Below are positions 1,168 through 62,963 of a stretch of DNA of 64,000 bases, in pieces (within the stretch, counting starts at the first letter, position 1; each line of letters begins with the position of its first letter). Location: the IMG/VR virus record IMGVR_UViG_3300019458_000191, positions 25,914 to 89,913 of that record; one strand, given 5' to 3'. Below the pieces are notes generated by a model that had not been told where the DNA came from, ran no database searches, and worked only from the letters and a program-made list of their open reading frames with translations. The translations under genes were made by a program, and so were the position numbers. The DNA is from a virus.

Positions 1168-1529
1168 CCGACTTTCCCATAACAAATGAAGAGTTTGAGG
1201 CCCATCCTTGGAAAACAACCGAAATAGGAGAATACAAAGTTGATTACTATATATTACATACTTTTACTGATAGCAATTTGTATATCCGTATCACTCTTAA
1301 AGACCCTTCTTTTCATTCTTTCAGCCAGTCGGAAGCCATGGCAGAAGTTTTCAAAGTTAAAAATTATTTGTGTAATGAAGGATTTTTGGATGAAGAGATG
1401 GAAGGAACTAATTTTCCCGACGCCAATATAATAATTTATTCTATATTTGTTTATACAAAGAATAACGTCATAAAAGAAAATGTGTGGGATAAATTTTATG
1501 ATTGGTTAAAGAAAAAACTTTACGAATAA
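1164..1529 (+). CDS. Hypothetical protein between DHFR and thymidylate synthase
   Basis: A 121-residue soluble protein starting at an ATG that overlaps the DHFR stop codon by four bases. It has aromatic and acidic residues throughout, a predicted mixed alpha/beta character, and ends with a basic K-K-K-L tail. No motif or family is recognised. Its position, coupled to DHFR and followed within six bases by thymidylate synthase, says it is expressed with the folate/dTMP genes, but gives no function. Confidence 0.75.
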   Translation: MTDFPITNEEFEAHPWKTTEIGEYKVDYYILHTFTDSNLYIRITLKDPSFHSFSQSEAMAEVFKVKNYLCNEGFLDEEMEGTNFPDANIIIYSIFVYTKNNVIKENVWDKFYDWLKKKLYE

Positions 1530-1534
1530 AAAAG

Positions 1535-2620
1535 ATGAATATGAATAAAGTCGATGCAGAATATAATAGATTGGTAGAATTGGTTTTAAACGAAGGTAAA
1601 TTAAAGAAAAATAGAACGGGTATTGATACCATAGGTGTATTTGGTGCTCAATCTAAGTTTGATATTAATCTGGATGCATTTCCAATATTGACCACCAAAA
1701 AAGTATTCTTTAAAGGAATCGTTCATGAACTTTTATGGTTCATTAGTGGTGATAATAACATAAAATATTTAGTGGATAATAACGTTCACATTTGGGATGA
1801 ATGGGCATACGTAAAATTCCAAAAAGATAGTTGGTTGGGAAACAAGGAATATAGACATGAATTTCAAACTCAAGAAAAATTCATTCAGCGAATAAAGGAT
1901 TTGGATAAAGATGATTGGTTTGTTAAAAAATTCGGAGACTTAGGCGTGGGAACATACGGTGGAATGTGGAGAGATTTTCCTTATAGTGATTATTTTCAAG
2001 GAGCAGACTTGTCAGTTGAACTAGAATCAAGAGGCATAGACCAATTACAAAAAGTATTAAACAGTCTAAAATATAATCCGGATGATAGAAGAATGATTGT
2101 CAATTCGTGGCACCCATATTGGGTGGATAAATGTGCGTTGCCTCCGTGTCATTGTTTATTTCATTTTAATACAGAAGAATTGACTCACCAAGAAATGATA
2201 GATGAAGCCTTAAAGATATACATTAATGGTGACAAAGAATACCTCAACGGGTTATCATACAAACAATGTATCGATGATGCTTATATTCCTAAAAGAAGAT
2301 TGAATTGTTTGCTATATCAACGTTCGGCTGACTTGGGTTTAGGTATTCCTTTTAATATCACTTCTTATTGTTTATTGACAGCGATGATTGCTCACTGTGT
2401 AAGAATGGTGTCAGGAACATTTACACATACGTATGGAGACTTACATATTTATAAAAATCATATACCTTTTCTTTCTAAACAGATAACCAATTCTGGATAT
2501 GATTTACCACGTTTACGTATAAACACCAGCAGAAGAAATTTATTTGACTTGGTTTATGAAGACATTCAATTGGAAAATTATGTTTCTCAACCAACAATAA
2601 AGATGGACATCGCAGTATAA
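1535..2620 (+). CDS. thyA: Thymidylate synthase (folate-dependent, ThyA type)
   Basis: Methylates dUMP to dTMP using methylene-tetrahydrofolate; works with the upstream DHFR to supply dTTP. The open frame extends up to a TTG at 1502, but that would overlap the upstream gene; ATG 1535 gives 361 residues (a second ATG lies at 1541). Family features: R-x-G near residues 26-29, H-E-L-L-W-F near 64-69, paired arginines near 186-187, catalytic Cys at about 205 in P-P-C-H, and the R-S-A-D-L-G-L-G-I-P-F-N dUMP-binding segment followed by H-T-Y-G-D-L-H-I-Y. Bacterial ThyA is about 264 residues; the extra length is mostly an insertion around residues 100-150 and another near 215-250, as in the longer lactobacillus-type enzymes. 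Confidence 0.95.
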   Translation: MNMNKVDAEYNRLVELVLNEGKLKKNRTGIDTIGVFGAQSKFDINLDAFPILTTKKVFFKGIVHELLWFISGDNNIKYLVDNNVHIWDEWAYVKFQKDSWLGNKEYRHEFQTQEKFIQRIKDLDKDDWFVKKFGDLGVGTYGGMWRDFPYSDYFQGADLSVELESRGIDQLQKVLNSLKYNPDDRRMIVNSWHPYWVDKCALPPCHCLFHFNTEELTHQEMIDEALKIYINGDKEYLNGLSYKQCIDDAYIPKRRLNCLLYQRSADLGLGIPFNITSYCLLTAMIAHCVRMVSGTFTHTYGDLHIYKNHIPFLSKQITNSGYDLPRLRINTSRRNLFDLVYEDIQLENYVSQPTIKMDIAV

Positions 2621-39046: not shown

Positions 39047-39859
39047 CTAATAATCGAAAAATTGTTTTGATAAAGACTCATCGGCCTTTTTAAATTCGGA
39101 AACATTCTTTCTGTTGTGATTCACCACAGATAAATCGAATTTTGGCTTCTCCGTCATCTTTTCAAATCCATCATCTGTTTGTTTCTTCCACTCCAAATCA
39201 ATCTCTTTTGGATAATCTAATGTCCATTCTACTGTTGATTTTGTCAACATTTTTCGAGAGAGTTTATTTAAAGGCATAATGTATCGGAACTGTTTTCCAC
39301 GTATCCTAATAATTCCTTTTGATTTGATAAAATCTTTCGTTAACCAAAAAACTTTTTCTTTGCCGATTTGTTTAGCGTTTTCTTTACACAATTCCTTTGC
39401 CGATCGGGGATGAATCTTTTCTCCGTCGGGACCAATGTAAACATCCGTCCAAATGAATCCTCCATATAAAAAATTTGCCGATTGATAGACGTATCCAACC
39501 TTTCCAACAATTCCATCTGCCCAAGTAAATAGAAATTTTCTTTCTGGTGTGTTGACCTTCATCCAAGAAATCACAGCAGATAACATCTGAGATTCAGAGT
39601 TTCTTGGCATCGAAGGCTCCATACACATCTTACCTATTTCATAGTAATCCTTAGTTGTCAATGTAGGAAATAGTTTCCGAATTGTAGCAAGGGGCTGGGT
39701 ACCCCACCCTAACGTCAATACTCCAACCAGTTTTTCTTTGAGATAGATACCAAGAAAGTGCTTTGTTAATTTCGGCATAACTTTAGAATAATGATGTTTA
39801 TGGATAAATTCTCCGGCGAGAAACTTATCTATACATTTTATTGTAAAACTATATTTCAT
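39047..39859 (-). CDS. Mom-like DNA-modification protein (GNAT-related)
   Basis: 270 residues. The central part, Y-E-I-G-K-M-C-M-E-P, then N-S-E-S-Q-M-L-S-A-V, and F-T-W-A-D-G-I-V-G-K-V-G-Y-V-Y-Q-S-A-N-F-L-Y-G-G near 125-148, matches the Mu Mom family of GNAT-like enzymes that alter adenine. It probably protects phage DNA from host restriction. The C-terminal 100 residues are a basic/acidic tail not seen in Mu Mom. Located next to the polymerase and a homing endonuclease. Confidence 0.75.
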   Translation of the reverse strand: MKYSFTIKCIDKFLAGEFIHKHHYSKVMPKLTKHFLGIYLKEKLVGVLTLGWGTQPLATIRKLFPTLTTKDYYEIGKMCMEPSMPRNSESQMLSAVISWMKVNTPERKFLFTWADGIVGKVGYVYQSANFLYGGFIWTDVYIGPDGEKIHPRSAKELCKENAKQIGKEKVFWLTKDFIKSKGIIRIRGKQFRYIMPLNKLSRKMLTKSTVEWTLDYPKEIDLEWKKQTDDGFEKMTEKPKFDLSVVNHNRKNVSEFKKADESLSKQFFDY

Positions 39860-45713: not shown

Positions 45714-45923
45714 ATGAAAAAAGACACTCGTATAGCAACCACCGCCAAGTTAGAAAACGACTTGTATGATGAATTTAAGATTCAAACCGTAAGAAAGAAA
45801 CTCACCCTTCAAACATTTGTAGAAAAATGTGTCCATCTTTATACTACTAATGGAAAATTTCGAGATTTGGTTGATGATTTCTCGTTACCAAAGTTAAGCA
45901 CGAGTGGTTCTTTTGGCTCGTAA
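45714..45923 (+). CDS. Ribbon-helix-helix (CopG-like) DNA-binding protein
   Basis: 69 residues. The pattern I-A-T-T-A-K-L-E-N-D-L-Y-D-E-F-K, then K-L-T-L-Q-T-F-V-E-K-C-V, fits an RHH fold: an N-terminal strand and two helices that pair to bind DNA. C-terminal tail is Ser/Gly-rich. It probably controls its own or nearby genes. It is the first gene of the glycan island. Confidence 0.7.
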   Translation: MKKDTRIATTAKLENDLYDEFKIQTVRKKLTLQTFVEKCVHLYTTNGKFRDLVDDFSLPKLSTSGSFGS

Positions 45924-45966
45924 TTTCTTCCGACAACAAAAAAGTTTTAATTCCGATACAATAACT

Positions 45967-47448
45967 ATGAAAAAGAAAATTTTGTTACTCTCCGACGATT
46001 TAAGAATGCATTCTGGCGTTGCAACAATGTCCAGAGAATTGGTTTTGGGAACTCTTCATAAATACGATTGGGTTCAAATAGCTGGTGCTATACAACATCC
46101 AGAAAAAGGAAAAATCATTAACATGGATGCTGCATGCGTTCAAATGACGGGAGTAAAAGATGCCAAGTTGGTGTTATATCCTGTCGATGGTTATGGAAAC
46201 GAAGACATTCTTTTTAACATCATCGATAAAGAAAAGCCTGATGCAATCATGCACTTTACCGACCCTCGTTTTTGGGGATGGTTATATGCCATTGAAAGAC
46301 AACTTCGTAGTTTTATTCCATTAACTTATCTAAATATTTGGGATGATATTCCGTATCCAATGTATAATCGGCCGTTCTATGAATCTTGTGATTTGTTAAT
46401 GTCAATCAGTAAACAAACCTATAACATCAATAAACATGTTATGGGAGAAGAAAATTGTTGCACGGTAAATGACACAGAAATGAAAGGAAGAACACTTCTT
46501 CATTATGTTCCACATGGAATTAATGCCAAAACATTTCGTCCTTTTCTAAAAGACGACCAGGTTCTTCTAAAGAAACGAAAAGAACTGTTTGGTGGTAAGG
46601 ATTATGACTTTACGATTTTTTACAATAGCCGAAACGTTCAAAGAAAGCGAACAAGCAACATCTTATTAGCATACAAAACCTTTTGTGATAATCTTCCAAA
46701 AGAAAAAGCTGATAAGTGTGTTTTAGTTCTTCACACCGAACCAAGACAAGATGCAGGAACGGATTTGATTGCTGTTAAGGAAGCATTTTGTCCTGATTAC
46801 GATGTTATATTTTCAACGGCACGATTGACACCGGATGATATGAATTTCATGTATAACATCGCCGATGTAACTATTAATCTTTCATCAAACGAAGGTTTTG
46901 GTCTTTCTACGGCAGAATCATTAATGTCTGGTACGCCAATCATCGTTGCTGTCACCGGAGGTTTACAAGACCAAATCGGACAAGTAAAAGATGATGGTTC
47001 GGAGATTGTGTTTGATAAAAACTTTGGTTCAAATAACTGCGGAAAATATAAGAAACATGGTGTTTGGGTGAAGCCTGTATGGCCAGCTACACGAGTTATT
47101 CAAGGTTCGGTTCCAACTCCATATATTTTCGATGACCTTGCTAAATGGGAAGACGCAGCAGAAGCAATGTTATATTGGTATCTAATGCCTAAAGAAAAAA
47201 GAGTGGCTTGTGGATTAGAAGGAAGACGTTGGTGTTTAAACGAAGGTGGATTGAATGCCGAAAATATGTGTAATCAATTTGTAACTTGTATGGATTACAC
47301 TTTAGAAAAATTCCGACCAGTAAAACAAGTCGGATTATTCACCGATAAAGATTACGTCGGCCATTTGATGCCAGGAAATATGGGATTTGAACTTCCTGTT
47401 TTTGATAAAGAAAAATTAAAACAAGAAGCGGAATCCGTTGTAGTATAA
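45967..47448 (+). CDS. Glycosyltransferase, GT-B fold
   Basis: 493 residues from ATG 45967; an upstream ATG (45904) would overlap the RHH gene. L-L-L-S-D-D-L then S-G-V-A near 18-21 (N-domain), P-H-G-I-N in the hinge, I-F-Y-N-S-R-N-V-Q-R-K-R (start of the C-domain), and S-S-N-E-G-F-G-L-S-T-A-E-S near 320-332, the E-x7-E site for the sugar-nucleotide of GT4 enzymes. Two Trp-rich motifs between are unusual. Acceptor unknown. Confidence 0.85.
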   Translation: MKKKILLLSDDLRMHSGVATMSRELVLGTLHKYDWVQIAGAIQHPEKGKIINMDAACVQMTGVKDAKLVLYPVDGYGNEDILFNIIDKEKPDAIMHFTDPRFWGWLYAIERQLRSFIPLTYLNIWDDIPYPMYNRPFYESCDLLMSISKQTYNINKHVMGEENCCTVNDTEMKGRTLLHYVPHGINAKTFRPFLKDDQVLLKKRKELFGGKDYDFTIFYNSRNVQRKRTSNILLAYKTFCDNLPKEKADKCVLVLHTEPRQDAGTDLIAVKEAFCPDYDVIFSTARLTPDDMNFMYNIADVTINLSSNEGFGLSTAESLMSGTPIIVAVTGGLQDQIGQVKDDGSEIVFDKNFGSNNCGKYKKHGVWVKPVWPATRVIQGSVPTPYIFDDLAKWEDAAEAMLYWYLMPKEKRVACGLEGRRWCLNEGGLNAENMCNQFVTCMDYTLEKFRPVKQVGLFTDKDYVGHLMPGNMGFELPVFDKEKLKQEAESVVV

Positions 47449-50013: not shown

Positions 50014-50694
50014 ATGAAAATAAGTTATTTGGTAACGTGTAAAAATGAAACCACCACCCTTGATGAATTACTAAATTTAGTTTGGGTGGCTGCCTGTTCC
50101 ATGCCTGAGGATGAAGTAGTGATTGTTGATGATTTTTCGGATAATCCAGAAACTCAAAAGATTCTCGATAACTATAAGAGTAAAGAAAGAGTAAGATTAC
50201 TTCAACACCCTCTTAATAATAACTACGGAGAACATAAAAATTGGGGAACACAACAATGTAAGGGTGATTACGTTTTTCAAATTGATGGCGACGAGTTACC
50301 TTCTTCAAATTTAGTCGGCGAAACCCTCCACGAAATAATAAAAAGTAATCCGACCATAGAACTCATTTTTGTTCCAAGAGTTAACGACTTTAATGGTGTT
50401 ACACCATCTCATGCTTCTCAGTGGGGATGGAGAATAACATATTCTAAAGAATCGAACAAACCAATTGTTAATTGGCCAGATTATCAAGGAAGAATATACA
50501 AAAGAGAATATCCAAGAATTCATTGGTTCAAAAGACTACATGAATGCATACAAGGAATGAATGAATATAGCCTTCTTCCATGTGATGATGAATCTTTATC
50601 TTTATTACATCGTAAAACAATAGAGAAACAAATTGCAACAAATTTGGGTTACAACAAAAATTTTACCGAATCTGAAAATAAGGGACAAGGATAA
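50014..50694 (+). CDS. Family 2-type (GT-A) glycosyltransferase
   Basis: 226 residues. V-D-D-F-S-D near 38-43 and Q-I-D-G-D-E near 89-94 are the two GT2 acid motifs (the second is the D-x-D). No membrane segment, so it probably works on a soluble or phage-encoded acceptor. Its end overlaps nothing and the next gene starts at once. Confidence 0.82.
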   Translation: MKISYLVTCKNETTTLDELLNLVWVAACSMPEDEVVIVDDFSDNPETQKILDNYKSKERVRLLQHPLNNNYGEHKNWGTQQCKGDYVFQIDGDELPSSNLVGETLHEIIKSNPTIELIFVPRVNDFNGVTPSHASQWGWRITYSKESNKPIVNWPDYQGRIYKREYPRIHWFKRLHECIQGMNEYSLLPCDDESLSLLHRKTIEKQIATNLGYNKNFTESENKGQG

Positions 50695-50695
50695 T

Positions 50696-52597
50696 ATGAA
50701 GACTGTTCACAAACCTTGGGGAAGAGAAGAATGGTTAGAATTAAACGACCGTTATTGTTATAAAAGAATATACATTAACGCCGGATATAAAACCAGCTAT
50801 CAATATCATAATTTCAAAAGAGAAACGAATTATATCATTTCTGGAGAAGCTGAAATATGGTTAGAAAATGATAATGGAGTAGTTGAAAAGAAGATAATGA
50901 AGGCAGGAGAATATTTCAATGTCACCCCTCCAAAAAAACATCGAGTCATTGCAATAACCGACATAGTTCTTCAAGAAGTATCAACTCCTGAAGTTGATGA
51001 TGTTATTAGAATCGAAGATGATGCCAAAAGAAAAGACGGAAGAATCGAATCGGAACATAAAACTCCGGCCGTTCTTATTTTATCTGCTGGTTTGGGAACT
51101 AGATTGAAAAAACTTACCGAACATATCAATAAGTCTCTAGTTCCTCTTAACAATAAAGCCGTATTATCACATATCATCGAAAAATTTCCAAAGGAATATG
51201 ATATAGTTATTGCTATTGGTCATAAAGGAGATTTAATAAAGGAGTATTGTAGTTTAGCACACTCAGATCGAAAAATAACTTATGTAGATGTAGATAATTT
51301 TGATGGACCTGGGTCTGGACCCGGACACTCTACATTAAAATGTAAGGATTATTTACAACGACCATTTTACTTAACCACTGCTGATTGTATATTAACCGAT
51401 TCTTTGCCTCACTTGGATGGTAATTGGTTGGGATGTCATCCAACTTCTTATCCTGAAAAATATTCTACTGTTATGGTCGATGAAAATAATGAAGTCGTTT
51501 CATTTGTAAACAAATCAGAACATGGTCATGATTTGGCATTCATTGGATTGGCTGGAATAATGGATTATTCTGTATTTTGGAAATCATTAGAGACACATAT
51601 ACAAAAAGGTGAAGTAGTTTCGGCTTGGTCCGACCCATCGGAATATTCACAATTAAAAGTAAAAACCTTAGAGTGGTTAGATGTAGGTAATTTGGATGAC
51701 TTAGATACAGCGAGAAAGGTATTAAACGAATCTCCATTATCTCTTTCCAAAGATGTAGGAGAATTTACTTATAAAGTAGGTAATAAATTTCTAAAATTTA
51801 ACCATGACCGAAAAATAACTGAAAACAGAACTATCCGTGCAAAACATTTGTTTGGATTGATTCCTTCAGATTTCCGTTCTACGGAGCATTTCATATCTTA
51901 TAATTGGTCCGAAGGGAAGACCTTATATCAATACGATAATGTAGAATTATATCAAAAATTTTTGGTGTGGTTTTCATCAATTGCAAAAGATGCTGTATTA
52001 GAATGTGAATCCATTAAAGAATTTTACATAGACAAAACCAATGATAGAATTAAAAAATTCACACAAAAATACGGAGAAAAATATTATAAAGAATCATTGT
52101 GTATAAATGGAAAACTCTATCCATCTTTAAAATCCTTGTGGGAAGTAAATAAATCGGATTGGTTCATCTTTTCTCGGAGATATAAACAATTTCACGGCGA
52201 CCTACAGTTTGATAATATCATATACAATTCTTCAAAATCATTTAGTTATTTGGATTGGAGAGATTCTTTCGGAAAAAATGTAGATGGTGGAGACGTTTGT
52301 TATGATATAGCTAAACTGTATGGTGGTATGTTAATACCCTATGATAAAATGAAAGATAATAGAAACGTATCTTTAGTAGAAAGTTTCCCGAGTGTCGATT
52401 ATACCATTCTTACGAACGAAAAGTTAATATCAATGTTACCTCAATTTTTTAGTTGGGCATTCGGTCATGGTATAACAAAAGAAGGATTGAATAGATTAAC
52501 TGCAATCATATTCATTAATATGGCTCCACTTCACGATGAAGTATTCGGGAAGGCTTTATGGTGTAAAGGAATACAAATGCTTCATGAAAATAACTAA
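50696..52597 (+). CDS. Cupin + sugar nucleotidyltransferase + APH-like kinase fusion
   Basis: 633 residues from ATG 50696. Domain 1 (1-115): type II mannose-6-phosphate-isomerase-like cupin (K-P-W-G start, Q-Y-H, E-D-D). Domain 2 (about 125-340): nucleotidyltransferase with L-S-A-G-L-G-T-R-L at 129-137 and a T-A-D site near 228-230. Domain 3 (about 350-633): aminoglycoside-phosphotransferase/choline-kinase-like fold, H-G-D-L at 500-503, N507 and D520 in L-D-W-R-D. Such an enzyme could isomerise or bind, phosphorylate and activate one sugar or alcohol in one chain. This domain order is unusual. Confidence 0.85.
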   Translation: MKTVHKPWGREEWLELNDRYCYKRIYINAGYKTSYQYHNFKRETNYIISGEAEIWLENDNGVVEKKIMKAGEYFNVTPPKKHRVIAITDIVLQEVSTPEVDDVIRIEDDAKRKDGRIESEHKTPAVLILSAGLGTRLKKLTEHINKSLVPLNNKAVLSHIIEKFPKEYDIVIAIGHKGDLIKEYCSLAHSDRKITYVDVDNFDGPGSGPGHSTLKCKDYLQRPFYLTTADCILTDSLPHLDGNWLGCHPTSYPEKYSTVMVDENNEVVSFVNKSEHGHDLAFIGLAGIMDYSVFWKSLETHIQKGEVVSAWSDPSEYSQLKVKTLEWLDVGNLDDLDTARKVLNESPLSLSKDVGEFTYKVGNKFLKFNHDRKITENRTIRAKHLFGLIPSDFRSTEHFISYNWSEGKTLYQYDNVELYQKFLVWFSSIAKDAVLECESIKEFYIDKTNDRIKKFTQKYGEKYYKESLCINGKLYPSLKSLWEVNKSDWFIFSRRYKQFHGDLQFDNIIYNSSKSFSYLDWRDSFGKNVDGGDVCYDIAKLYGGMLIPYDKMKDNRNVSLVESFPSVDYTILTNEKLISMLPQFFSWAFGHGITKEGLNRLTAIIFINMAPLHDEVFGKALWCKGIQMLHENN

Positions 52598-53222
52598 AGA
52601 CACAAGAATATACTGTTCATTTTCCTTAAAAGCAGGAAATAATGGATGTCATTTCTTTAATTCCCATTTTCAAACCCATAAAATTGATGCAATCTACCGT
52701 TCATTCTCCGTTAATAACATTTATGATGCTTTATTTTCAGCCAAAACACTAAAGTTTTCAGGGTGTGGAATATCAATGCCCTTTAAAATTACGGCATGTG
52801 AATACGTCGATGAATTAAATTGGACGGTAGAACGGTGTGGTGCCCTAAATACGGTCGTATTTGACGATGGAAAATCAATTGGCTACAATACCGATTTTGT
52901 TGCCGCTTATCGGATGTTGGGTATTTATAATCCAGATAATAGAAAAATATATATTCTTGGATCAGGCGGGTTATCAAAAGCATACCAATCTGCGTGTAGA
53001 GACAAAAAAATAGAATTTATTATTTTAAATAGACAAAACATTAATAAAGTGTTTGAGTTAAAGAACGAGATTATCTTTAATTGCACTCCATTGTTTTTGG
53101 ATGTAAAAAATAATGTCTATATCGATTGTTCGGTAGATACAGAAAGAGGACATGAATTCTTTTTATATCAAGCCTGTGAACAATTTAAACTTTATACGGG
53201 ATATGAAATATCAAATACCTAA
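52584..53222 (+). CDS. Shikimate-dehydrogenase-like oxidoreductase
   Basis: 212 residues from ATG 52584 (overlaps the previous gene by 14 bases). I-S-M-P-F-K near 63-68, G-A-L-N-T at 86-90, G-Y-N-T-D at 100-104 and a Rossmann G-S-G-G-L-S-K-A at 127-134 place K68, N89 and D104 exactly as the catalytic K65, N86 and D102 of AroE. Length is shorter (272 in E. coli AroE), the C-terminal lobe is cut. It probably reduces a ketose or cyclic keto acid related to the sugar pathway rather than shikimate. Confidence 0.78.
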   Translation: MKITKDTRIYCSFSLKAGNNGCHFFNSHFQTHKIDAIYRSFSVNNIYDALFSAKTLKFSGCGISMPFKITACEYVDELNWTVERCGALNTVVFDDGKSIGYNTDFVAAYRMLGIYNPDNRKIYILGSGGLSKAYQSACRDKKIEFIILNRQNINKVFELKNEIIFNCTPLFLDVKNNVYIDCSVDTERGHEFFLYQACEQFKLYTGYEISNT

Positions 53223-54186
53223 ACTTTTCGTCGGACCTGTTTCAAAAAATACCGTCGATTCAGTAATTGAGTATTCTAATGAACATGATGTTCCTCTTGG
53301 TTTAATTCCTTCCCGAAGACAAATTGATTGGAATGGTGGATATGTAAATGGGTGGAACACCGAAACTTTTTGTGAATACGTTCGTGCCAAAACAAAAAAT
53401 GTAATCATTCAACGAGATCACGGTGGTTCCAATCAAGGAATATTAGATGATGACGGTGAAAGGTCTTTTTTGGAAGATAACGTGTTCATGGATATAATCC
53501 ACATAGACCCTTGGAAATTGAATATTAATTTCGATGATGGTATTAGGGAAACAATACATTGGTTAAATAGATTAGATAATCCTAACGTAAAGTTTGAAAT
53601 AGGAACCGAACAATCGATTCGAAAAATGGATATAGAATTGGCTGAAAGGTTTCTAAAAAGAGTGGCAAAATCTACTCCCGGTAGAATTTTTTCTAAGATT
53701 CAATATTTTGTTATTCAATCCGGAACGTCTTTGATGGAAAATTCTCAAACCGGAACATATTGTCCGGACACATTATTAGATTTCGTTGCCCTTTCGAGAA
53801 AAAATCTATTATACACTAAAGAACATAACGGAGATTATATTTCATCCAAGGAAATACGTAATAAATTTAAATTAGGATTGGATTCTATCAATCTCGCTCC
53901 GGAGTTCGGTATGATTGAAACTTCTTGTATTTTAAAGGAATTAGATGAAGAAGGAGAAGAAGATTTACTGAATCATTTTTATTCTATTTGTTATAAATCT
54001 GACACTTGGCGTAAATGGATAGGGAAAGATTTTGATGTAAATGATAAAGAAAGATTGATTAAAATCTGTGGGCACTATTTGTTTTCGACACCTGGATTCG
54101 AAAAAATTAAATACAATATGAGAGATTTGGATAAAGAAATAAAATTCAAAATGAAAGAAAGAATACATGAAATCGTTAAACAATAA
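53203..54186 (+). CDS. GatZ/KbaZ-like class II aldolase-family protein
   Basis: 327 residues from ATG 53203, overlapping the previous stop by 20 bases. The opening S-R-R-Q-I-D-W-N-G-G-Y and V-I-I-Q-R-D-H-G-G-S-N-Q-G near 80-92, then later I-H-I-D-P and F-E-I-G-T-E recall the tagatose-bisphosphate aldolase non-catalytic subunit GatZ/KbaZ (TIM barrel). Family members chaperone or act as aldolases. Here it may condense or split a ketose-phosphate; no catalytic GatY partner is in the window. Confidence 0.72.
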   Translation: MKYQIPKLFVGPVSKNTVDSVIEYSNEHDVPLGLIPSRRQIDWNGGYVNGWNTETFCEYVRAKTKNVIIQRDHGGSNQGILDDDGERSFLEDNVFMDIIHIDPWKLNINFDDGIRETIHWLNRLDNPNVKFEIGTEQSIRKMDIELAERFLKRVAKSTPGRIFSKIQYFVIQSGTSLMENSQTGTYCPDTLLDFVALSRKNLLYTKEHNGDYISSKEIRNKFKLGLDSINLAPEFGMIETSCILKELDEEGEEDLLNHFYSICYKSDTWRKWIGKDFDVNDKERLIKICGHYLFSTPGFEKIKYNMRDLDKEIKFKMKERIHEIVKQ

Positions 54187-54559
54187 AGCCAAGACCATCT
54201 TTTGTGATATTGACGGGACAATCCTCAACCATGCAGGAAAAATAGACGACCTTATTTATCAACTTAGAAAGCCAGAATATCAATTGGGTGCTAAACTTTT
54301 AGAAGGAGTGAAGGAACGATTTCAAGAGTGGGAAGAGAGAGGATATAACATTATTCTCACTACCGGCAGGCGAGAGTCTTTAAGAGAAGTGACCGAAAAA
54401 CAATTGTTAAGATTAGGAATCAGTTATGACCAATTAATAATGGGTATTGGCGGAGGTCAACGAGTTCTTATCAATGACTTAAAACCTAACAGTACCGAAC
54501 CTACTGCTATAGCCATTTGTTTGAAACGTGACGGGGGTATGAAGAATGTCAAAATATGA
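54167..54559 (+). CDS. HAD phosphatase of capsule-locus type
   Basis: 130 residues. D-I-D-G-T-I near 14-19 (nucleophile), L-T-T-G-R-R-E-S near 64-71, and L-I-N-D-L-K-P late. These single-domain HADs occur in capsule and LPS loci of bacteria. Substrate likely a sugar phosphate. Overlaps both neighbours by 4-20 bases. Confidence 0.78.
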   Translation: MKSLNNKAKTIFCDIDGTILNHAGKIDDLIYQLRKPEYQLGAKLLEGVKERFQEWEERGYNIILTTGRRESLREVTEKQLLRLGISYDQLIMGIGGGQRVLINDLKPNSTEPTAIAICLKRDGGMKNVKI

Positions 54560-55029
54560 TAAAAATGATATCACATAGAGGTAATGTTCATGGTCCTGAC
54601 TTAAACAAAGAAAATCATCCTGATTATATCTTGGAAGCTGTGAAATTGGGATTTGATGTAGAAATAGATGTATGGAGACTTCCTAATGGTAAGTGGTGGC
54701 TCGGGCACGATGAACCACAATACACCGTTACTATGGAATTTTTAAGAAATCCGGTATTTTGGTGTCATGTAAAAAATTCGGATGCATTAAATTATTTTAG
54801 AGAACATAGTAATCACTGCCATTATTTTTGGCACCAATCGGATGATTATGTACTTACATCAAGAGGAATCGTATGGGTTCATTCTAAGAAACATCTTATA
54901 CCAAAATCAGTTTGTGTTTTGCCTGAATTAGGAATACACGGGGATATTCGACAATGTTATGGAGTATGTAGTGACTTCATTGAAAAATACAAATACACTC
55001 TATATGAAACAGCCAATAAAGAAGATTAA
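54556..55029 (+). CDS. GDPD/PI-PLC-like TIM-barrel protein
   Basis: 157 residues. S-H-R-G-N at the start (the R-G/HR signature of glycerophosphodiester phosphodiesterases), E-I-D-V-W near 36-40 and G-H-D-E-P near 50-54 match GDPD motifs, but the barrel is short and the C-terminal third is unlike classic GDPDs. Similar proteins occur in capsule loci. It may cut a phosphodiester-linked precursor. Confidence 0.68.
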   Translation: MIKMISHRGNVHGPDLNKENHPDYILEAVKLGFDVEIDVWRLPNGKWWLGHDEPQYTVTMEFLRNPVFWCHVKNSDALNYFREHSNHCHYFWHQSDDYVLTSRGIVWVHSKKHLIPKSVCVLPELGIHGDIRQCYGVCSDFIEKYKYTLYETANKED

Positions 55030-55567
55030 ATTAGTAATATTAGACATAGACGGTGTATTAACGGATGGAACAAAGGTATATGATTTAAACGGGAAAGTCA
55101 TTGGAAAAAGATTCAATGATAAAGATTTCACTGCAATAAAAAGACTGAAAGCATCGGGAGTGAAAGTATGTTTTTTAACTGGAGACTTAAATGTAAACGA
55201 AGAAGTTGCAAAGAAACGGGGCATTGACTTATTCTTTTCAAGAACTGCTGACGGTTCATTAAGTAAAAAATCGTTTTTACCAACTTTATATGAAGTGTAT
55301 GATGCCGACCAGTCTTCTACGGTATATGTGGGCGATGATTTGTTTGATTTAGATATTATCGAAGAACTCACATGGACATACTGCCCAAAAGATGCCATTT
55401 TTGACATTAAAATGAATTGTCATAATGTTTTAAGGGTAAATGGTGGTGAGGGCGTAGTTGCAGACTTATATCTCGAATTAGTTACGAAAGGAATGATAAT
55501 TCCTGCTTCTCTTGAAACTATTATAGAAATAGATAGAATCGAGTCAATGACAGCTTTAAAGAAATGA
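55004..55567 (+). CDS. KdsC-like HAD phosphatase, copy 1
   Basis: 187 residues from ATG 55004 (overlaps previous gene by 26 bases). Matches KDO-8-phosphate phosphatase: D-I-D-G-V-L-T-D-G near 14-22, F-L-T-G-D near 60-64, K-K-S-F near 92, and V-G-D-D-L-F-D near 110. About half identical to the gene at 60187. Would remove a phosphate from a keto-sugar acid or related. No KdsA synthase seen here. Confidence 0.82.
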   Translation: MKQPIKKIKLVILDIDGVLTDGTKVYDLNGKVIGKRFNDKDFTAIKRLKASGVKVCFLTGDLNVNEEVAKKRGIDLFFSRTADGSLSKKSFLPTLYEVYDADQSSTVYVGDDLFDLDIIEELTWTYCPKDAIFDIKMNCHNVLRVNGGEGVVADLYLELVTKGMIIPASLETIIEIDRIESMTALKK

Positions 55568-56367
55568 AAGACCTTATTATATATGGTAACTTGATTCGTG
55601 ATAAGATTCATCTTTGTGAAGATGAATTTGTGATGGGTCAACCCAATAATAATTGCCATATAATAGATTCGGTTGGTGGAATAGGCAATCACGTAAAAAC
55701 CATCGAATTAACAGGATTAGATTTATCTTATTCCACAAAGTTCATAATGGGCACCGAATATGATCCCATATCTCAAGCAACGGTGATTGTGGATAAAAAG
55801 GACGGTAAAAAAAGAAAGACGAGTTCGGTAAAATGGGGTGCCGACACGAGATTAAGTGCAGAATACATACAACATGAGTCGGCTCAATGGCATCATATTT
55901 CTTATTTAGATGCTCTTCCGAAAATAACCGTAGAAGATGTTATTCAAATGGGAAATTCTTGTGAATTTGTTTCGGTAGATTTTTGTGGAGCAAATTTTCC
56001 TTATGATGAACGAATTTTTAACTGGTTGGATTTTATCATAACATCCGATACAGAAATAAATAAAATACCTCCACATTTACATCACAAGTGTATAATACAT
56101 TCACCGACTGAAACTATATATTTTGATGAAGTGCATGGATTTCAACATATAAAAAATCCTATTCCCTTCGACGAAGATATTTGTATATTAGGAGCAGGAG
56201 ATGCTTATTGTGTATCTTTTATCTTTCAATTCTTAAAAACGAGGTCTATGAAAGAATCGATAAAATTTGCTCATACAAATGCTTACAAATATTTAGTTTT
56301 AAAATTTCCTAATAATGGTTATGAAGAAAAAATACAACCTCTTAATTCCGATTGCTGGATTAGGTAG
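55564..56367 (+). CDS. PfkB-family sugar kinase
   Basis: 267 residues. G-G-I-G-N-H near 38-43 (sugar-binding N-motif) and L-G-A-G-D-A at 209-214 with D213 as the catalytic base of PfkB/ribokinase enzymes. It phosphorylates a sugar for the pathway. The lid strand is short. Overlaps the next gene by 53 bases, which is unusual; the downstream start may be ATG 56321. Confidence 0.82.
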   Translation: MKDLIIYGNLIRDKIHLCEDEFVMGQPNNNCHIIDSVGGIGNHVKTIELTGLDLSYSTKFIMGTEYDPISQATVIVDKKDGKKRKTSSVKWGADTRLSAEYIQHESAQWHHISYLDALPKITVEDVIQMGNSCEFVSVDFCGANFPYDERIFNWLDFIITSDTEINKIPPHLHHKCIIHSPTETIYFDEVHGFQHIKNPIPFDEDICILGAGDAYCVSFIFQFLKTRSMKESIKFAHTNAYKYLVLKFPNNGYEEKIQPLNSDCWIR

Positions 56368-57496
56368 TAGGTTCGTAAAAGAAAACTACTTCCTTCCAAA
56401 GCCTCTAATTTTAGTAAACAATCGTTCCATCATTGAATGGACAATGGATTGTGTTGACCATTCAAACTGTAATATCATCTTTATAGTCCGTAGAGAACAT
56501 ATTGTAGATTTTAACATCGATGGATATCTCCGAGCGAAATTTGGAAATGATATAACAATAATCGAAGTGGATAAAACGACTGAGGGCGCAGTATGTTCGT
56601 GCCTATTAGCCGAATCACATATTGATAACGACCTTCCTCTAATTATCCATTGTTCGGATATTTATTTTGAACCAAAATTTGACCCGGCTTCATTGGACGG
56701 TCTTCTCATGGATGGTGTAATATTGACTTTCAAATCCAATAGCAAAAATTACAGTTATGTAGAACTAAATGAAGAATCGGTCGTTACTAAAACAGCCGAA
56801 AAACAGGTTATTAGTCCAAATGCAGCCGTTGGTATCTATTGGTATAAACGAGGAAGTGATTTTGTCAAGTATGCAAAGAATATGATTCAGAGAAACATCC
56901 GAACGAATAATGAATTTTTCATTTGTCCGCTTTACAATATATTCATAGAAAATGGACATAAGATTCTTACAAAGCCGGTAGAAAAAATGCATGTATTTGG
57001 AACACCCGAAGAACTTAGATTCTTTGTAAATAACAGTCTTCGAACATGGCCTGATAGAAAACATACTGTTGCTTTGTGTAGTGACCATTCAGGATTTGAA
57101 ACGAAGGAAGAATTCAAAAAGATTTTGACTTTTCATGGAATATCGTATGTTGATTTTGGTGTTCATGATAAAACTATAGATAGAGATTATTATGAATATG
57201 TTCATGCAGCCGCAGATGCGGTCACGAATGGTCAATGTAATTTTGGCTTTGGATTTTGTCGAAGTGGGCAAGGTGTAAATATAACTGCAAATAAGATGAA
57301 AGGTATTCGTTCTGCTTGGGTGAACGATGGTTATTTGGCAGAAATGGCAATAAGACACAATTGTTGTAACTTTTTTTCGTTACCTGCAAAATACAATACA
57401 GCCGATACTTTCCGAGACATAGCTCTGGCATGGAAAAACTCTACGTTTGATGGTGGAAGACATCAGCAGAGAGTTTATAAAATAGAAACATTATAA
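56315..57496 (+). CDS. Sugar nucleotidyltransferase + RpiB isomerase fusion
   Basis: 393 residues from ATG 56315 (or ATG 56321). Domain 1 (about 8-240): nucleotidyltransferase with P-I-A-G-L-G-S-R-F at 12-20 and a C-S-D-I site at 113-116. Domain 2 (about 250-393): ribose-5-phosphate isomerase B (RpiB) fold with C-S-D-H-S-G at 255-260 and C315 in G-F-C-R-S-G-Q-G near the active site, then A-N-K-M-K-G. It would isomerise and activate a pentose/hexose phosphate. I do not know of this fusion elsewhere. Confidence 0.84.
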   Translation: MVMKKKYNLLIPIAGLGSRFVKENYFLPKPLILVNNRSIIEWTMDCVDHSNCNIIFIVRREHIVDFNIDGYLRAKFGNDITIIEVDKTTEGAVCSCLLAESHIDNDLPLIIHCSDIYFEPKFDPASLDGLLMDGVILTFKSNSKNYSYVELNEESVVTKTAEKQVISPNAAVGIYWYKRGSDFVKYAKNMIQRNIRTNNEFFICPLYNIFIENGHKILTKPVEKMHVFGTPEELRFFVNNSLRTWPDRKHTVALCSDHSGFETKEEFKKILTFHGISYVDFGVHDKTIDRDYYEYVHAAADAVTNGQCNFGFGFCRSGQGVNITANKMKGIRSAWVNDGYLAEMAIRHNCCNFFSLPAKYNTADTFRDIALAWKNSTFDGGRHQQRVYKIETL

Positions 57497-59131: not shown

Positions 59132-59451
59132 AAATAACAGAAGGAAAAAAATTCAAAAATGGCTGGTACATTGGGGCATTTGAACCATCAATTTTGAATA
59201 CCAAGGATTTTGAGGTATCACATCAATTTCATAAAAAAGGATTTGTATCCACACCCCACTATCATAAAATTTCTAATGAATATAATTATATTGTTAATGG
59301 TTCGGTTTTAGTTAATCATCAACATCATTTAAAAAGAGGGGATACGTTCATTTACGAACCAAACGAAATTTCGGATGTAGAATTCTTAGAAGACACAGAT
59401 ATGATAGTGGTTCGAGTTCCTTCTGCACCCGGAGATAAATACGAAGTATGA
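59128..59451 (+). CDS. Cupin-fold protein
   Basis: 107 residues, one beta-barrel cupin: H-Y-H near 44-46, a G near 58 and R-G-D near 70-72 in the usual metal-binding layout. May be an isomerase or epimerase of the sugar pathway. ATGA overlaps on both sides. Confidence 0.72.
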   Translation: MKITEGKKFKNGWYIGAFEPSILNTKDFEVSHQFHKKGFVSTPHYHKISNEYNYIVNGSVLVNHQHHLKRGDTFIYEPNEISDVEFLEDTDMIVVRVPSAPGDKYEV

Positions 59452-60185
59452 GAGTTGCATTATGTTTGTCAGGACAACCAAGATTTGTAGAAAAGGCATA
59501 CCCTTATATCTACAATCATCTTATTGTCCCTAATTGTGCGGATGTTTTCTTTCATACATGGTTCTCAAAAGATGATGTAAATAAAGCATATCGAAATGAT
59601 ACCGGTTGGACAAATCATCCAAACAATAAAATTCCAGAAAATACTGAAGAGATTCTTTTAGGTCTTTACAAACCAAAATCTCACTTGTTTGAGAAACAAA
59701 GAACCTTCAAAAATAAGTCATGGAACGTAGATAAAACGATTCAAAAATTTTGTAGTCATCTTGAAAGAGATTACTTTGTAAATATGATGCATTGTATGTG
59801 GTATAGCATACACAAATCCAATGCTGTCAAAGAGATTTATAGATATGAACAGGACATAGTTTACGATTATGTTATACGATGTAGATTCGACGCCATCGTG
59901 CCACGTCCGTTATTATGTTCTGAATTAGACCCTAATATTCTTCATTTGAGTCATGACAGACAACAACCAAATATGTTAGATGATTGGTTCGCTGTGTCTT
60001 CGACAAAAAATATGAACGTATATACAGATTGTTACAATTTAATGGATGCGGCGTATGAAATAGGAATGAAACGAGATGGATTGGTATGTAATGAAATTTT
60101 AATACATGATGTGGTTAAACAATTCAACATACCTACAACAATAATACCGAATTTTAAAATTGAATTCGTAAGACCTTGGACATAA
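59448..60185 (+). CDS. Putative glycosyltransferase
   Basis: 245 residues. A-L-C-L-S-G-Q-P-R near 4-12 and A-D-V-F-F-H-T-W near 31-38 followed by C-R-F-D-A near 145 are the pattern of a glycosyltransferase family seen in capsule loci. No D-x-D clear. No function assigned beyond GT-like. Confidence 0.68.
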   Translation: MRVALCLSGQPRFVEKAYPYIYNHLIVPNCADVFFHTWFSKDDVNKAYRNDTGWTNHPNNKIPENTEEILLGLYKPKSHLFEKQRTFKNKSWNVDKTIQKFCSHLERDYFVNMMHCMWYSIHKSNAVKEIYRYEQDIVYDYVIRCRFDAIVPRPLLCSELDPNILHLSHDRQQPNMLDDWFAVSSTKNMNVYTDCYNLMDAAYEIGMKRDGLVCNEILIHDVVKQFNIPTTIIPNFKIEFVRPWT

Positions 60186-61394: not shown

Positions 61395-62182
61395 AAATAT
61401 TAGTTTGTATTCCTAATTACGGAACGGGAAATAGAGAACACTTAAAAAGAACTCTATTGGAATACTCTACATATAAAAATTATGAGTTGGAAATTCATCT
61501 TCTTTTAACTGATGAAATAGACGTTTCCGAGTTCACTACTCTTAAAATCATAAAACACTTTTATCCTAAAGACATCGGACATTTCTTGACTCACACTCAC
61601 AAACAGATTTTTACCCAAAACATAGAATTGTTTGATTACTTTTTATACATTGAAGATGATATTCTGTTGAGAGAGGTTTCCGTAGATTTGTTTATGGAAG
61701 AATCTAAAATTCTTCCTCCAAATTTTGTTTGTGGATTTCTTCGATTTGAATATAAAAAGGATGAAGATTATTGTTATTTGATAGACTGTCATCCAGAACA
61801 TTCTGTTCATAGAAATGGTAAAGGCATCATTAGAAACAATTATAACATTGTTGGTAATGACTATTTGGAATTACACAACGTTCATCAGGGGTGTTATCTT
61901 CTTTCTAAGGTTCAATTGCTGTTTGTAATTAAAAGTGGATGGTATTTTCATGACCATAGACACGGAGGATACGCTGGTATATTGGAATCTGCTGCATCGG
62001 ACGTTTATTTTAGGTGTGGAATAATAAAAGTCACACCAAGAAATAAAATAAATGAACTAATCATTCATCACTTGCCGAATAAATATGTAAATATGTTGCC
62101 GAATGTATATCGTGATGATATAGTTCCCGATGCCAATAAATTAAAGGTTATAGAAAATGAATCCAATCGTATTATATTGTAA
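61391..62182 (+). CDS. Glycosyltransferase, GT-A-like
   Basis: 263 residues from ATG 61391 (TTG 61385 is in frame). Y-I-E-D-D-I near 87-92 holds the D-x-D-like metal site, H-H-L-P-N-K near 222. The family is typical of phage and capsule loci; the donor is unknown. Overlaps the next gene by 26 bases. Confidence 0.68.
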   Translation: MKILVCIPNYGTGNREHLKRTLLEYSTYKNYELEIHLLLTDEIDVSEFTTLKIIKHFYPKDIGHFLTHTHKQIFTQNIELFDYFLYIEDDILLREVSVDLFMEESKILPPNFVCGFLRFEYKKDEDYCYLIDCHPEHSVHRNGKGIIRNNYNIVGNDYLELHNVHQGCYLLSKVQLLFVIKSGWYFHDHRHGGYAGILESAASDVYFRCGIIKVTPRNKINELIIHHLPNKYVNMLPNVYRDDIVPDANKLKVIENESNRIIL

Positions 62183-62963
62183 ATCCTATTGTAATGACGT
62201 TCAGAGAGTCAAAATACTTCTTGATTCTGTAGAAAAACACAACAAGGATGGCATTCCATTTTACATCTCCGTTCCTTCTACGGATATTACTATGTTTAAA
62301 ATGGTTTTAGGAGAACGGTCAACTTATACTCTCATCACCGACGAAGAAATTTTAGGAAACAACCTTGAACAATCATGGGTGAACCAACAAATTGTTAAGG
62401 TGTCCTTCTGGAAGTTGAAGAACTGTTTCAACTATCTAGTTTTAGATTCGGATAGTTATTTCATTCGTGACTTCTTCATCAAAGATTTCATTTATGACGG
62501 TGTAATTCCTTATACTGTAATTCATCAACAAAAAAATTTATTTGAATGGACGTGTAAAAATAAGAATATATTGGGATTTGACCCATCTATTTCATTTGGC
62601 GAATGTAGATATCCCATTATGGAATTATTTGGTAGGAAAGGAAAAATATATGATTTTGGTCCATGTCCGTTCATAAGCTCATGTTTAGTATGGGAATCTT
62701 TGGAAGAAAATTATATAAAACCAAATAATTTAAAAATTGAAGATTTAATACGGTTAATTTCTTCAGAATTTTCTTGGTATGGAGAAACTCTTTTAACATG
62801 GAAACCTATAGAACTACACCCTATAGAACCTCTGTTTAAAGTTATGCATTACTTGGATCAATACCAAGAATATAAACGATTAGGATATACAGAAAAACAT
62901 TGGTCAGAAAATTATTTAGGAATAGTTTGTCAAAGTTCTAGTGGGCTTCCGTTAAAATATTAA
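62157..62963 (+). CDS. DUF6492-type glycosyltransferase
   Basis: 268 residues. L-V-L-D-S-D-S-Y-F near 92-100 is the D-x-D-type motif of the DUF6492 glycosyltransferase family, and C-R-Y-P-I-M lies near 150. Last enzyme of the island before the second homing endonuclease. Confidence 0.75.
   Translation: MNPIVLYCKSYCNDVQRVKILLDSVEKHNKDGIPFYISVPSTDITMFKMVLGERSTYTLITDEEILGNNLEQSWVNQQIVKVSFWKLKNCFNYLVLDSDSYFIRDFFIKDFIYDGVIPYTVIHQQKNLFEWTCKNKNILGFDPSISFGECRYPIMELFGRKGKIYDFGPCPFISSCLVWESLEENYIKPNNLKIEDLIRLISSEFSWYGETLLTWKPIELHPIEPLFKVMHYLDQYQEYKRLGYTEKHWSENYLGIVCQSSSGLPLKY

What the first reader, a model, noticed from the sequence alone, without database searches (positions are those of the whole stretch)
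50696..52597. Three-domain fusion: cupin, nucleotidyltransferase, APH-like kinase
A single 633-residue protein joins a sugar-phosphate-isomerase-like cupin, an activating nucleotidyltransferase and a choline/aminoglycoside-type kinase. The order suggests isomerise/bind, phosphorylate, then nucleotidylate one substrate. I know of no characterised enzyme with this layout.
Basis: partly seen in the sequence, partly recalled or inferred. Interest (0 to 1): 0.65.

Follow-up and report, generated by a model that had tools for sequence, protein, structure and literature searches.

The report
Phage three-in-one sugar-activating enzyme
A phage gene fuses a sugar-binding cupin (probably an isomerase), a nucleotidyltransferase and a small-molecule kinase into one protein, and it travels with three more sugar-enzyme genes in dozens of distinct phages as what looks like a portable kit for making an unusual activated sugar.

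Summary
Window 50696-52597 (+) encodes one 633-residue protein: PMI-type cupin (1-112), LicC-like nucleotidyltransferase (124-345) and APH-fold kinase (346-633). All catalytic motifs are invariant in 49 aligned relatives. AlphaFold gives mean pLDDT 90, with low confidence only at linker 113-120. It is not a chance fusion: 59 fetched loci carry it, in at least 45 distinct sequences, and two further phage contigs plus several bacteria carry the NTase-kinase unfused. All 59 fusions are accompanied by a shikimate-dehydrogenase-family gene. Wherever the contig continues, a GatZ/KbaZ-type ketose-phosphate epimerase/aldolase and a HAD phosphatase are present. The HAD belongs to one of two families that never co-occur. 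Best reading: an NDP-sugar (or polyol) pathway with the logic of MupP-AmgK-MurU and of the RB69 pentose-activation module: epimerise/isomerise a sugar phosphate, dephosphorylate, phosphorylate the activating position, nucleotidylate. RB69 and Serratia phage X20 carry the same NTase-kinase plus HAD pair. One bacterial copy lies in an O-antigen/capsule locus, and most of 20 sibling phage contigs lack a thymidylate-synthase-family gene, so glycan use is favoured over DNA modification. Substrate, nucleotide and product are unproven. New variant of a known kind.

The parts
50696..51031 (+). Domain 1 of the fusion (residues 1-112): PMI-type cupin, putative sugar-phosphate isomerase/epimerase; candidate metal ligands Q36, H38, E43, H82
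   Evidence: PF01050 E 1.1e-7; profile hits to mannose-6-P isomerase 7zvm and other metal cupins; ligands conserved in all 48 fused rows; separate gene in L006 and in bacterial L094, L099-L102
51065..51730 (+). Domain 2 (residues 124-345): LicC/HddC-like nucleotidyltransferase; GxGxR, K146, D230, D329
   Evidence: PF00483; best solved relative LicC, E 1.1e-10 with profile; Foldseek TMt 0.82 to LicC; invariant residues
51731..52594 (+). Domain 3 (residues 346-633): APH/choline-kinase-fold small-molecule kinase; K367, HGDxxxxN 500-507, D520
   Evidence: APH Pfam in relatives; structural match to RB69 ORF052c and a phage aminoglycoside phosphotransferase; residues 49/49
52584..53222 (+). Partner B: shikimate-dehydrogenase-family NAD(P) oxidoreductase, catalytic K84 and D120 (ORF numbering from 52536) invariant; overlaps the end of the fusion gene
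   Evidence: PF08501 E 4.8e-13; present in all 59 three-domain loci and absent from the 2 two-domain loci; K84, N105, D120 46/46
53203..54186 (+). Partner C: GatZ/KbaZ-type TIM barrel, putative ketose-phosphate C4 epimerase or aldolase (residue numbers in the text count from base 53218)
   Evidence: AF2 pLDDT 95.5; Foldseek top hits 3txv and 2fiq; PF08013 in 14/47 members; D67, H68, E131, H203 align with GatZ D87, H88, E171, H257 and are 46/46 (PMC11907403)
54167..54559 (+). Partner D: HAD-superfamily phosphatase
   Evidence: PF03767/PF08282; one of two mutually exclusive HAD families present in 45 of 47 distinct loci, the other two being contig ends

Best explanation
The fusion is the activating enzyme of a four-gene cassette that makes a nucleotide-activated sugar (or sugar-derived polyol). 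Proposed course: (1) the GatZ/KbaZ-type barrel C remodels a ketose phosphate, most likely by C4 epimerisation through retro-aldol/aldol chemistry; (2) the cupin domain interconverts ketose and aldose phosphate; (3) the HAD phosphatase removes the distal phosphate; (4) the APH-fold domain phosphorylates the position to be activated, probably the anomeric hydroxyl as AmgK does; (5) the NTase domain couples that sugar phosphate to an NTP; (6) the SDH-family enzyme B oxidises or reduces one intermediate at an unassigned point. The product feeds the glycosyltransferases encoded around it, for virion or host-surface glycan. Shown here: domains, intact catalytic residues, the conserved cassette, its co-occurrence in bacteria and its relation to the RB69/X20 module. 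Inferred: every reaction, their order, the substrate, the nucleotide and the final use.
For: Domains and intact residues. Cassette: of 47 distinct loci (<90% identity) found by the fusion alone, 45 carry B, 45 carry C and 45 carry a HAD; the two lacking C and HAD end too soon. The two HAD families never co-occur, which looks like replacement of a required phosphatase. B accompanies exactly the 59 three-domain loci and is absent from the two with an unfused NTase-kinase. In an even sample of 398 genomes from one phylum, the NTase-kinase and C occur in the same 7 genomes (chance about 3e-15 if independent). Cupin and NTase-kinase are adjacent separate genes in L006, L094 and L099-L102, in three genomes in one frame with a single stop inside the match. 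A Sinorhizobium plasmid pairs C with the same cupin type, plus an aminotransferase and a HAD. RB69 and X20 pair a sugar-phosphate isomerase, NTase-kinase and HAD; RB69 DNA carries arabinose (PMC6024577). MupP (HAD), AmgK (anomeric kinase) and MurU (NTase) are a characterised pathway with this logic (PMC5371407). GatZ/KbaZ epimerise fructose-6-P to tagatose-6-P (PMC11907403), and C keeps that active-site signature. L068 places the cassette in a locus with a Wzy_C polymerase. Neighbours include nucleotide-sugar epimerase, dTDP-sugar epimerase and DegT families.
Against: No activity was tested. The cupin lacks the full PMI motif (H-H-H and E-H-W become H-N-F and E-T-N), so isomerase activity is a guess. 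APH does not reach Pfam's cut-off on the window protein itself. C is diverged from GatZ (12-14% identity in the structural alignments). LicC-type NTases also accept non-sugar phosphates (choline phosphate), so the substrate could be a polyol or amino alcohol. B has no assigned step. No contig tested here was shown to be a complete genome.
Confidence: 0.68

Rival explanations
1. The activated sugar is used to glycosylate phage DNA bases as an anti-restriction modification, as in RB69, rather than a glycan.
For: RB69 and Serratia phage X20 carry the same NTase-kinase plus HAD with a sugar-phosphate isomerase, next to their DNA polymerase. Enterococcus phage Planchet has an NTase-kinase beside a pyrimidine hydroxymethylase-type gene and glycosyltransferases. 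This phage also encodes a Mom-family protein. Inactivating the RB69-like gene TH1_060 in phage Thanatos almost abolishes propagation (PMC12838424).
Against: A thymidylate-synthase-family gene, the usual source of hydroxymethyl- or hydroxycytosine, was found in only 5 of 20 virus records carrying the fusion, two of these broken by stops. Records of 219 and 215 kb had none, though records may be fragments. The cassette sits among nucleotide-sugar and glycosyltransferase genes, and a bacterial copy lies in an O-antigen/capsule locus.
Confidence: 0.18
2. The fusion activates a non-sugar alcohol (choline-, glycerol- or ribitol-like), as LicA/LicC do, and the product is a CDP-alcohol for phosphodiester decoration of a glycan.
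For: LicC is the best solved relative by profile and has the best TM-score on target among the top hits. An APH/choline-kinase-like domain is fused to it. The neighbour at 54556-55029 resembles a glycerophosphodiester phosphodiesterase by eye (no Pfam match).
Against: The fixed partners C, B, HAD and a PMI-type cupin are sugar-phosphate enzyme families, with no choline uptake or LicD-like transferase seen in the cassette. RB69 relatives are linked to a pentose pathway.
Confidence: 0.2
3. The cupin is only a binding or regulatory domain and C is a catabolic aldolase, so the cassette scavenges host sugars rather than building a new one.
For: The cupin lacks the full PMI motif; C belongs to a family first described from catabolic operons (PMC11907403).
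Against: An NTase and conserved co-location with glycan genes indicate anabolism. Cupin metal ligands are strictly conserved, and the cupin is also paired with C without the NTase-kinase.
Confidence: 0.12

Closest known systems
RB69 ORF055c-ORF053c/052c-ORF051c and the Serratia phage X20 equivalent (candidate UDP-arabinose module)
   Same: NTase followed by APH-like kinase, a HAD gene immediately downstream, and a sugar-phosphate isomerase beside it
   Different: The isomerase is a separate SIS-fold protein rather than an N-terminal cupin; no C or SDH-family gene annotated in the stretches read; use is linked to DNA modification
MupP-AmgK-MurU peptidoglycan recycling pathway (PMC5371407)
   Same: HAD phosphatase, anomeric sugar kinase and NTase acting in series on one sugar (APH-like fold of AmgK from general knowledge)
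   Different: Separate proteins, no cupin, substrate N-acetylmuramic acid; the window protein scores far below the MurU models
LicC/LicA (phosphocholine pathway), including the LicCA fusion of Treponema denticola recalled from general knowledge
   Same: NTase and kinase of the same superfamilies in the same order
   Different: No cupin; substrate choline; the partner genes here are sugar enzymes
Type II GMP/PMI enzymes (ManC/AlgA)
   Same: Sugar NTase and PMI-type cupin in one chain
   Different: Order reversed (NTase then cupin), no kinase, and the PMI motif is altered here; far below the GMP_PMI cut-off (32 of 373 bits)
GatZ/KbaZ ketose-6-phosphate C4 epimerases (for partner C)
   Same: Fold and the D-H-E-H signature (PMC11907403)
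   Different: Shorter and strongly diverged; the window member has no Pfam match of its own

Membership tests
PMI-type cupin (PF01050) | Profile match above gathering cut-off | tested here: met
   32.4 bits against 23.6
PMI-type cupin (PF01050) | Metal ligands of the cupin barrel | tested here: met
   Q36, H38, E43, H82 in all 48 fused rows; assignment as ligands is from the cupin motif, not a structure with metal
Mannose-6-phosphate isomerase type II (GMP_PMI) | Equivalog model above cut-off; EHW motif | tested here: not met
   TIGR01479 32.3 of 373 bits; E-T-N in place of E-H-W
LicC/HddC-like sugar nucleotidyltransferase superfamily | GxGxR loop, catalytic Lys, two metal Asp; fold | tested here: met
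LicC (choline phosphate cytidylyltransferase) | Use of CTP and choline phosphate | not testable with these tools
   Needs an assay
APH/choline-kinase fold kinase | HxDxxxxN and metal Asp; Pfam APH | tested here: met
   Residues 49/49; Pfam above cut-off in family members L094 and L102, but no hit on the window protein itself
RB69-type phage sugar-activation module | NTase-kinase plus HAD plus sugar-phosphate isomerase | tested here: inconclusive
   NTase-kinase and HAD homologous; the isomerase here would be a cupin, activity unproven
MurU/AmgK | NCBIfam MurU equivalog cut-off | tested here: not met
   22.6-24 bits against cut-offs of 370 and 250; the works-like claim is unaffected
GatZ/KbaZ (partner C) | Fold and D87/H88/E171/H257 signature | tested here: met
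   PF08013 rings in only 14 of 47 members

The most novel reading that the evidence does not exclude
The cassette is a previously undescribed de novo pathway to a rare or unknown NDP-sugar. A GatZ-type epimerase, SDH-family oxidoreductase, HAD phosphatase and a trifunctional isomerase-kinase-nucleotidyltransferase convert a common ketose phosphate into an activated building block (for example a talose-, tagatose- or heptose-type sugar), exchanged between large phages and bacterial surface-polysaccharide loci.
Probability: 0.4. Interest if true: 0.72.

Novelty: new variant of a known kind. Interest (0 to 1): 0.55.

Why it matters
If right, one gene does most of the work of turning a sugar phosphate into an activated sugar, and the same four-gene kit recurs across many uncultured phages. 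That gives a testable handle on how large phages remake virion or host-surface glycans, and possibly DNA. It also offers a compact enzyme for rare NDP-sugar synthesis and corrects the naming of several phage genes annotated as phosphoheptose isomerase, cysteine dioxygenase or nucleotidyltransferase.

Tried and rejected
Chance adjacency or misread ORF: rejected (59 three-domain loci). Frameshift or decayed domain: rejected (invariant motifs). First guess that C is a plain class II aldolase: narrowed, because C has Gln where class II FBA has its second zinc His and keeps the GatZ signature. Bacterial hit L069 as evidence of a bacterial cassette: set aside, since its neighbours match virus-contig clusters; L068 was kept because its flanks are O-antigen genes. 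The Ku80 hits and Pfam hits other than GatZ and F_bP_aldolase: judged chance. A literature search for the three-domain layout found nothing relevant. PDB Foldseek of the full model listed only NTases in its top 50, so kinase and cupin folds rest on profiles and the viral library.

Full report
WHAT IS THERE. The window is bases 25914-89913 of an 89,913-base virus record. Its genes include a phage DNA polymerase, rIIA/rIIB, DNA ligase and a DNA helicase, thymidylate synthase and DHFR. At 50696-52597 (+) a single ATG-started ORF encodes 633 residues. Pfam gives MannoseP_isomer at 2-108 and NTP_transferase from 127. Orthologues add a weak APH hit, and more distant bacterial members pass the APH cut-off. 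AlphaFold2 with 49 relatives gives mean pLDDT 90.3, with the only stretches below 50 in the linker at 113-120. Foldseek against the PDB places the NTase domain nearest LicC by TM-score on target (0.82) among LicC, RmlA and GalU. The viral library matches RB69 ORF053c and ORF052c, a phage aminoglycoside phosphotransferase, and viral cupins.

HOW WIDESPREAD. Protein searches in viral contigs returned 4 and then 63 loci. Clustering all ORFs put 61 loci in one family, 59 of them three-domain, falling into 47 distinct sequences below 90% identity. Two are unfused: L006, a marine single-cell virus contig where cupin and NTase-kinase are adjacent genes, and L065. Two MAG contigs carry the fusion. L069 looks viral by its neighbours. 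L068 has a WecA/MraY-like transferase by eye, a Wzy_C polymerase, and a nucleotide-sugar dehydrogenase by eye, i.e. a bacterial O-antigen or capsule locus.

THE CASSETTE. The loci were selected only by the fusion, so what lies beside it is informative. The next gene B (SDH family) is present in all 59 three-domain loci and absent from both two-domain ones. C is present in all but two loci, whose stored sequence ends just downstream. A HAD gene is also present in all but those same two loci, and comes from one of two families that never occur together. The HAD switch suggests replacement of a required phosphatase. Pairwise identities of A correlate with those of B (r 0.42), C (0.56) and the two HADs (0.66, 0.80), against 0.18 for a neighbouring epimerase family.

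BACTERIAL VERSIONS. In 398 genomes sampled evenly from the phylum of the L069 MAG (named in its record as an alphaproteobacterium), the NTase-kinase and C were found in exactly the same seven genomes. The chance of identical sets, if independent, is about 3e-15, with the caveat that related genomes are not independent. In 395 genomes of the other phylum (that of the L068 Flavobacteriaceae MAG) the overlap is 2 of the 3 genomes with the NTase-kinase. In these bacteria the cupin is a separate gene next to the NTase-kinase, with C and a KdsC-like HAD nearby and no B detected. In three genomes the whole-length match runs through cupin and NTase-kinase with a single stop inside, an obvious route to the fusion. 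A Sinorhizobium plasmid has C followed by the same cupin type, then an aminotransferase and a HAD, without the NTase-kinase. That ties the cupin functionally to C.

PARTNER C. The window member has no Pfam hit of its own. The family hits GatZ_KbaZ-like in 14 of 47 members. AF2 gives a TIM barrel at pLDDT 95.5 whose best PDB matches are the GatZ/KbaZ structures 3txv and 2fiq. GatZ and KbaZ were long called aldolase chaperones but convert fructose-6-P to tagatose-6-P, with a predicted active site D87, H88, E171, H257 (PMC11907403). These align with D67, H68, E131 and H203 of C, all invariant in 46/46. A ketose-phosphate C4 epimerase or a related retro-aldol enzyme is therefore the best reading.

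WHAT IT WORKS LIKE. Two known systems use the same set of enzyme types. In peptidoglycan recycling, MupP (HAD phosphatase), AmgK (anomeric sugar kinase) and MurU (NTase) act in series on MurNAc-6-P (PMC5371407). In RB69, whose DNA carries arabinose, ORF055c (sugar-phosphate isomerase), ORF053c/052c (NTase and kinase halves) and ORF051c lie together; ORF053c/052c and ORF055c are proposed to help make UDP-arabinose (PMC6024577). ORF051c is annotated phosphoheptose isomerase but is a HAD of the second cassette type (E 1.9e-22). Serratia phage X20 has the NTase-kinase in one 564-aa chain followed by the same HAD type (E 4.7e-23). Prochlorococcus phage P-TIM68 also combines this cupin, an NTase, a sugar kinase and the same HAD type. 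The recurrent set is isomerase or cupin, HAD, kinase, NTase.

MECHANISM AND LIMITS. The proposed order is: C remodels a ketose phosphate, the cupin isomerises it, HAD removes the distal phosphate, the kinase phosphorylates the activating hydroxyl, the NTase makes the NDP-sugar; B acts at an unassigned step. Only sequence, structure prediction and gene context support this. The cupin lacks the full PMI motif, so the isomerase step is the weakest link within the fusion.

GLYCAN OR DNA. DNA modification remains open because of the RB69 link, and because Planchet carries an NTase-kinase beside a hydroxymethylase-type gene. Against it, only 5 of 20 virus records with the fusion hold a thymidylate-synthase-family gene, two of these interrupted, while the cassette's neighbours are nucleotide-sugar enzymes. 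Fragmentary records weaken the absence.

VERDICT. Observation confirmed; interpretation partly supported and extended; a new variant of a known kind (a phage sugar-activation module) with an architecture for which no characterised example was found.

Noticed in passing
window 54959-57496: A second, separate set of the same enzyme kinds: KdsC-like HAD phosphatase, a PfkB-like kinase, and an NTase fused to an RpiB-type isomerase. It may activate a different sugar by the same logic.
   Followed up: partly
window 39047-39859 (-): A Mom-family protein (PF25680, E 3.6e-52), suggesting Mu-Mom-like DNA modification in this phage.
   Followed up: no
L126 709-1095 (RB69 ORF051c); L114 6342-6680 (P-TIM68): Genes annotated 'phosphoheptose isomerase' are HAD-superfamily proteins of the cassette's second HAD type.
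   Followed up: yes
L114 5911-6342 (P-TIM68): A cupin annotated 'putative nucleotidyltransferase' (KM359505) or 'cysteine dioxygenase' (NC_028955) belongs to the same cupin family as the fusion's first domain.
   Followed up: yes
window 1502-2620: Thymidylate synthase ORF of 372 aa against a 266-position model; an insertion may be present.
   Followed up: no
window 54556-55029: Short protein that looks by eye like a glycerophosphodiester phosphodiesterase (SHRGN, EIDV motifs) without a Pfam match; phrog_34507 of unknown function.
   Followed up: no
L068 14347-17397: 1016-aa protein with PPDK_N and PEP-utiliser domains and an N-terminal part that looks NTase-like by eye, beside the bacterial cassette; reminiscent of Campylobacter Cj1416/Cj1418 from general knowledge.
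   Followed up: no
window 62157-62963, 59448-60185, 50014-50694, 45904-47448: Several glycosyltransferase-type or glycan-related genes (DUF6492, weak DUF7796, GT2, GT4) flank the cassette.
   Followed up: no
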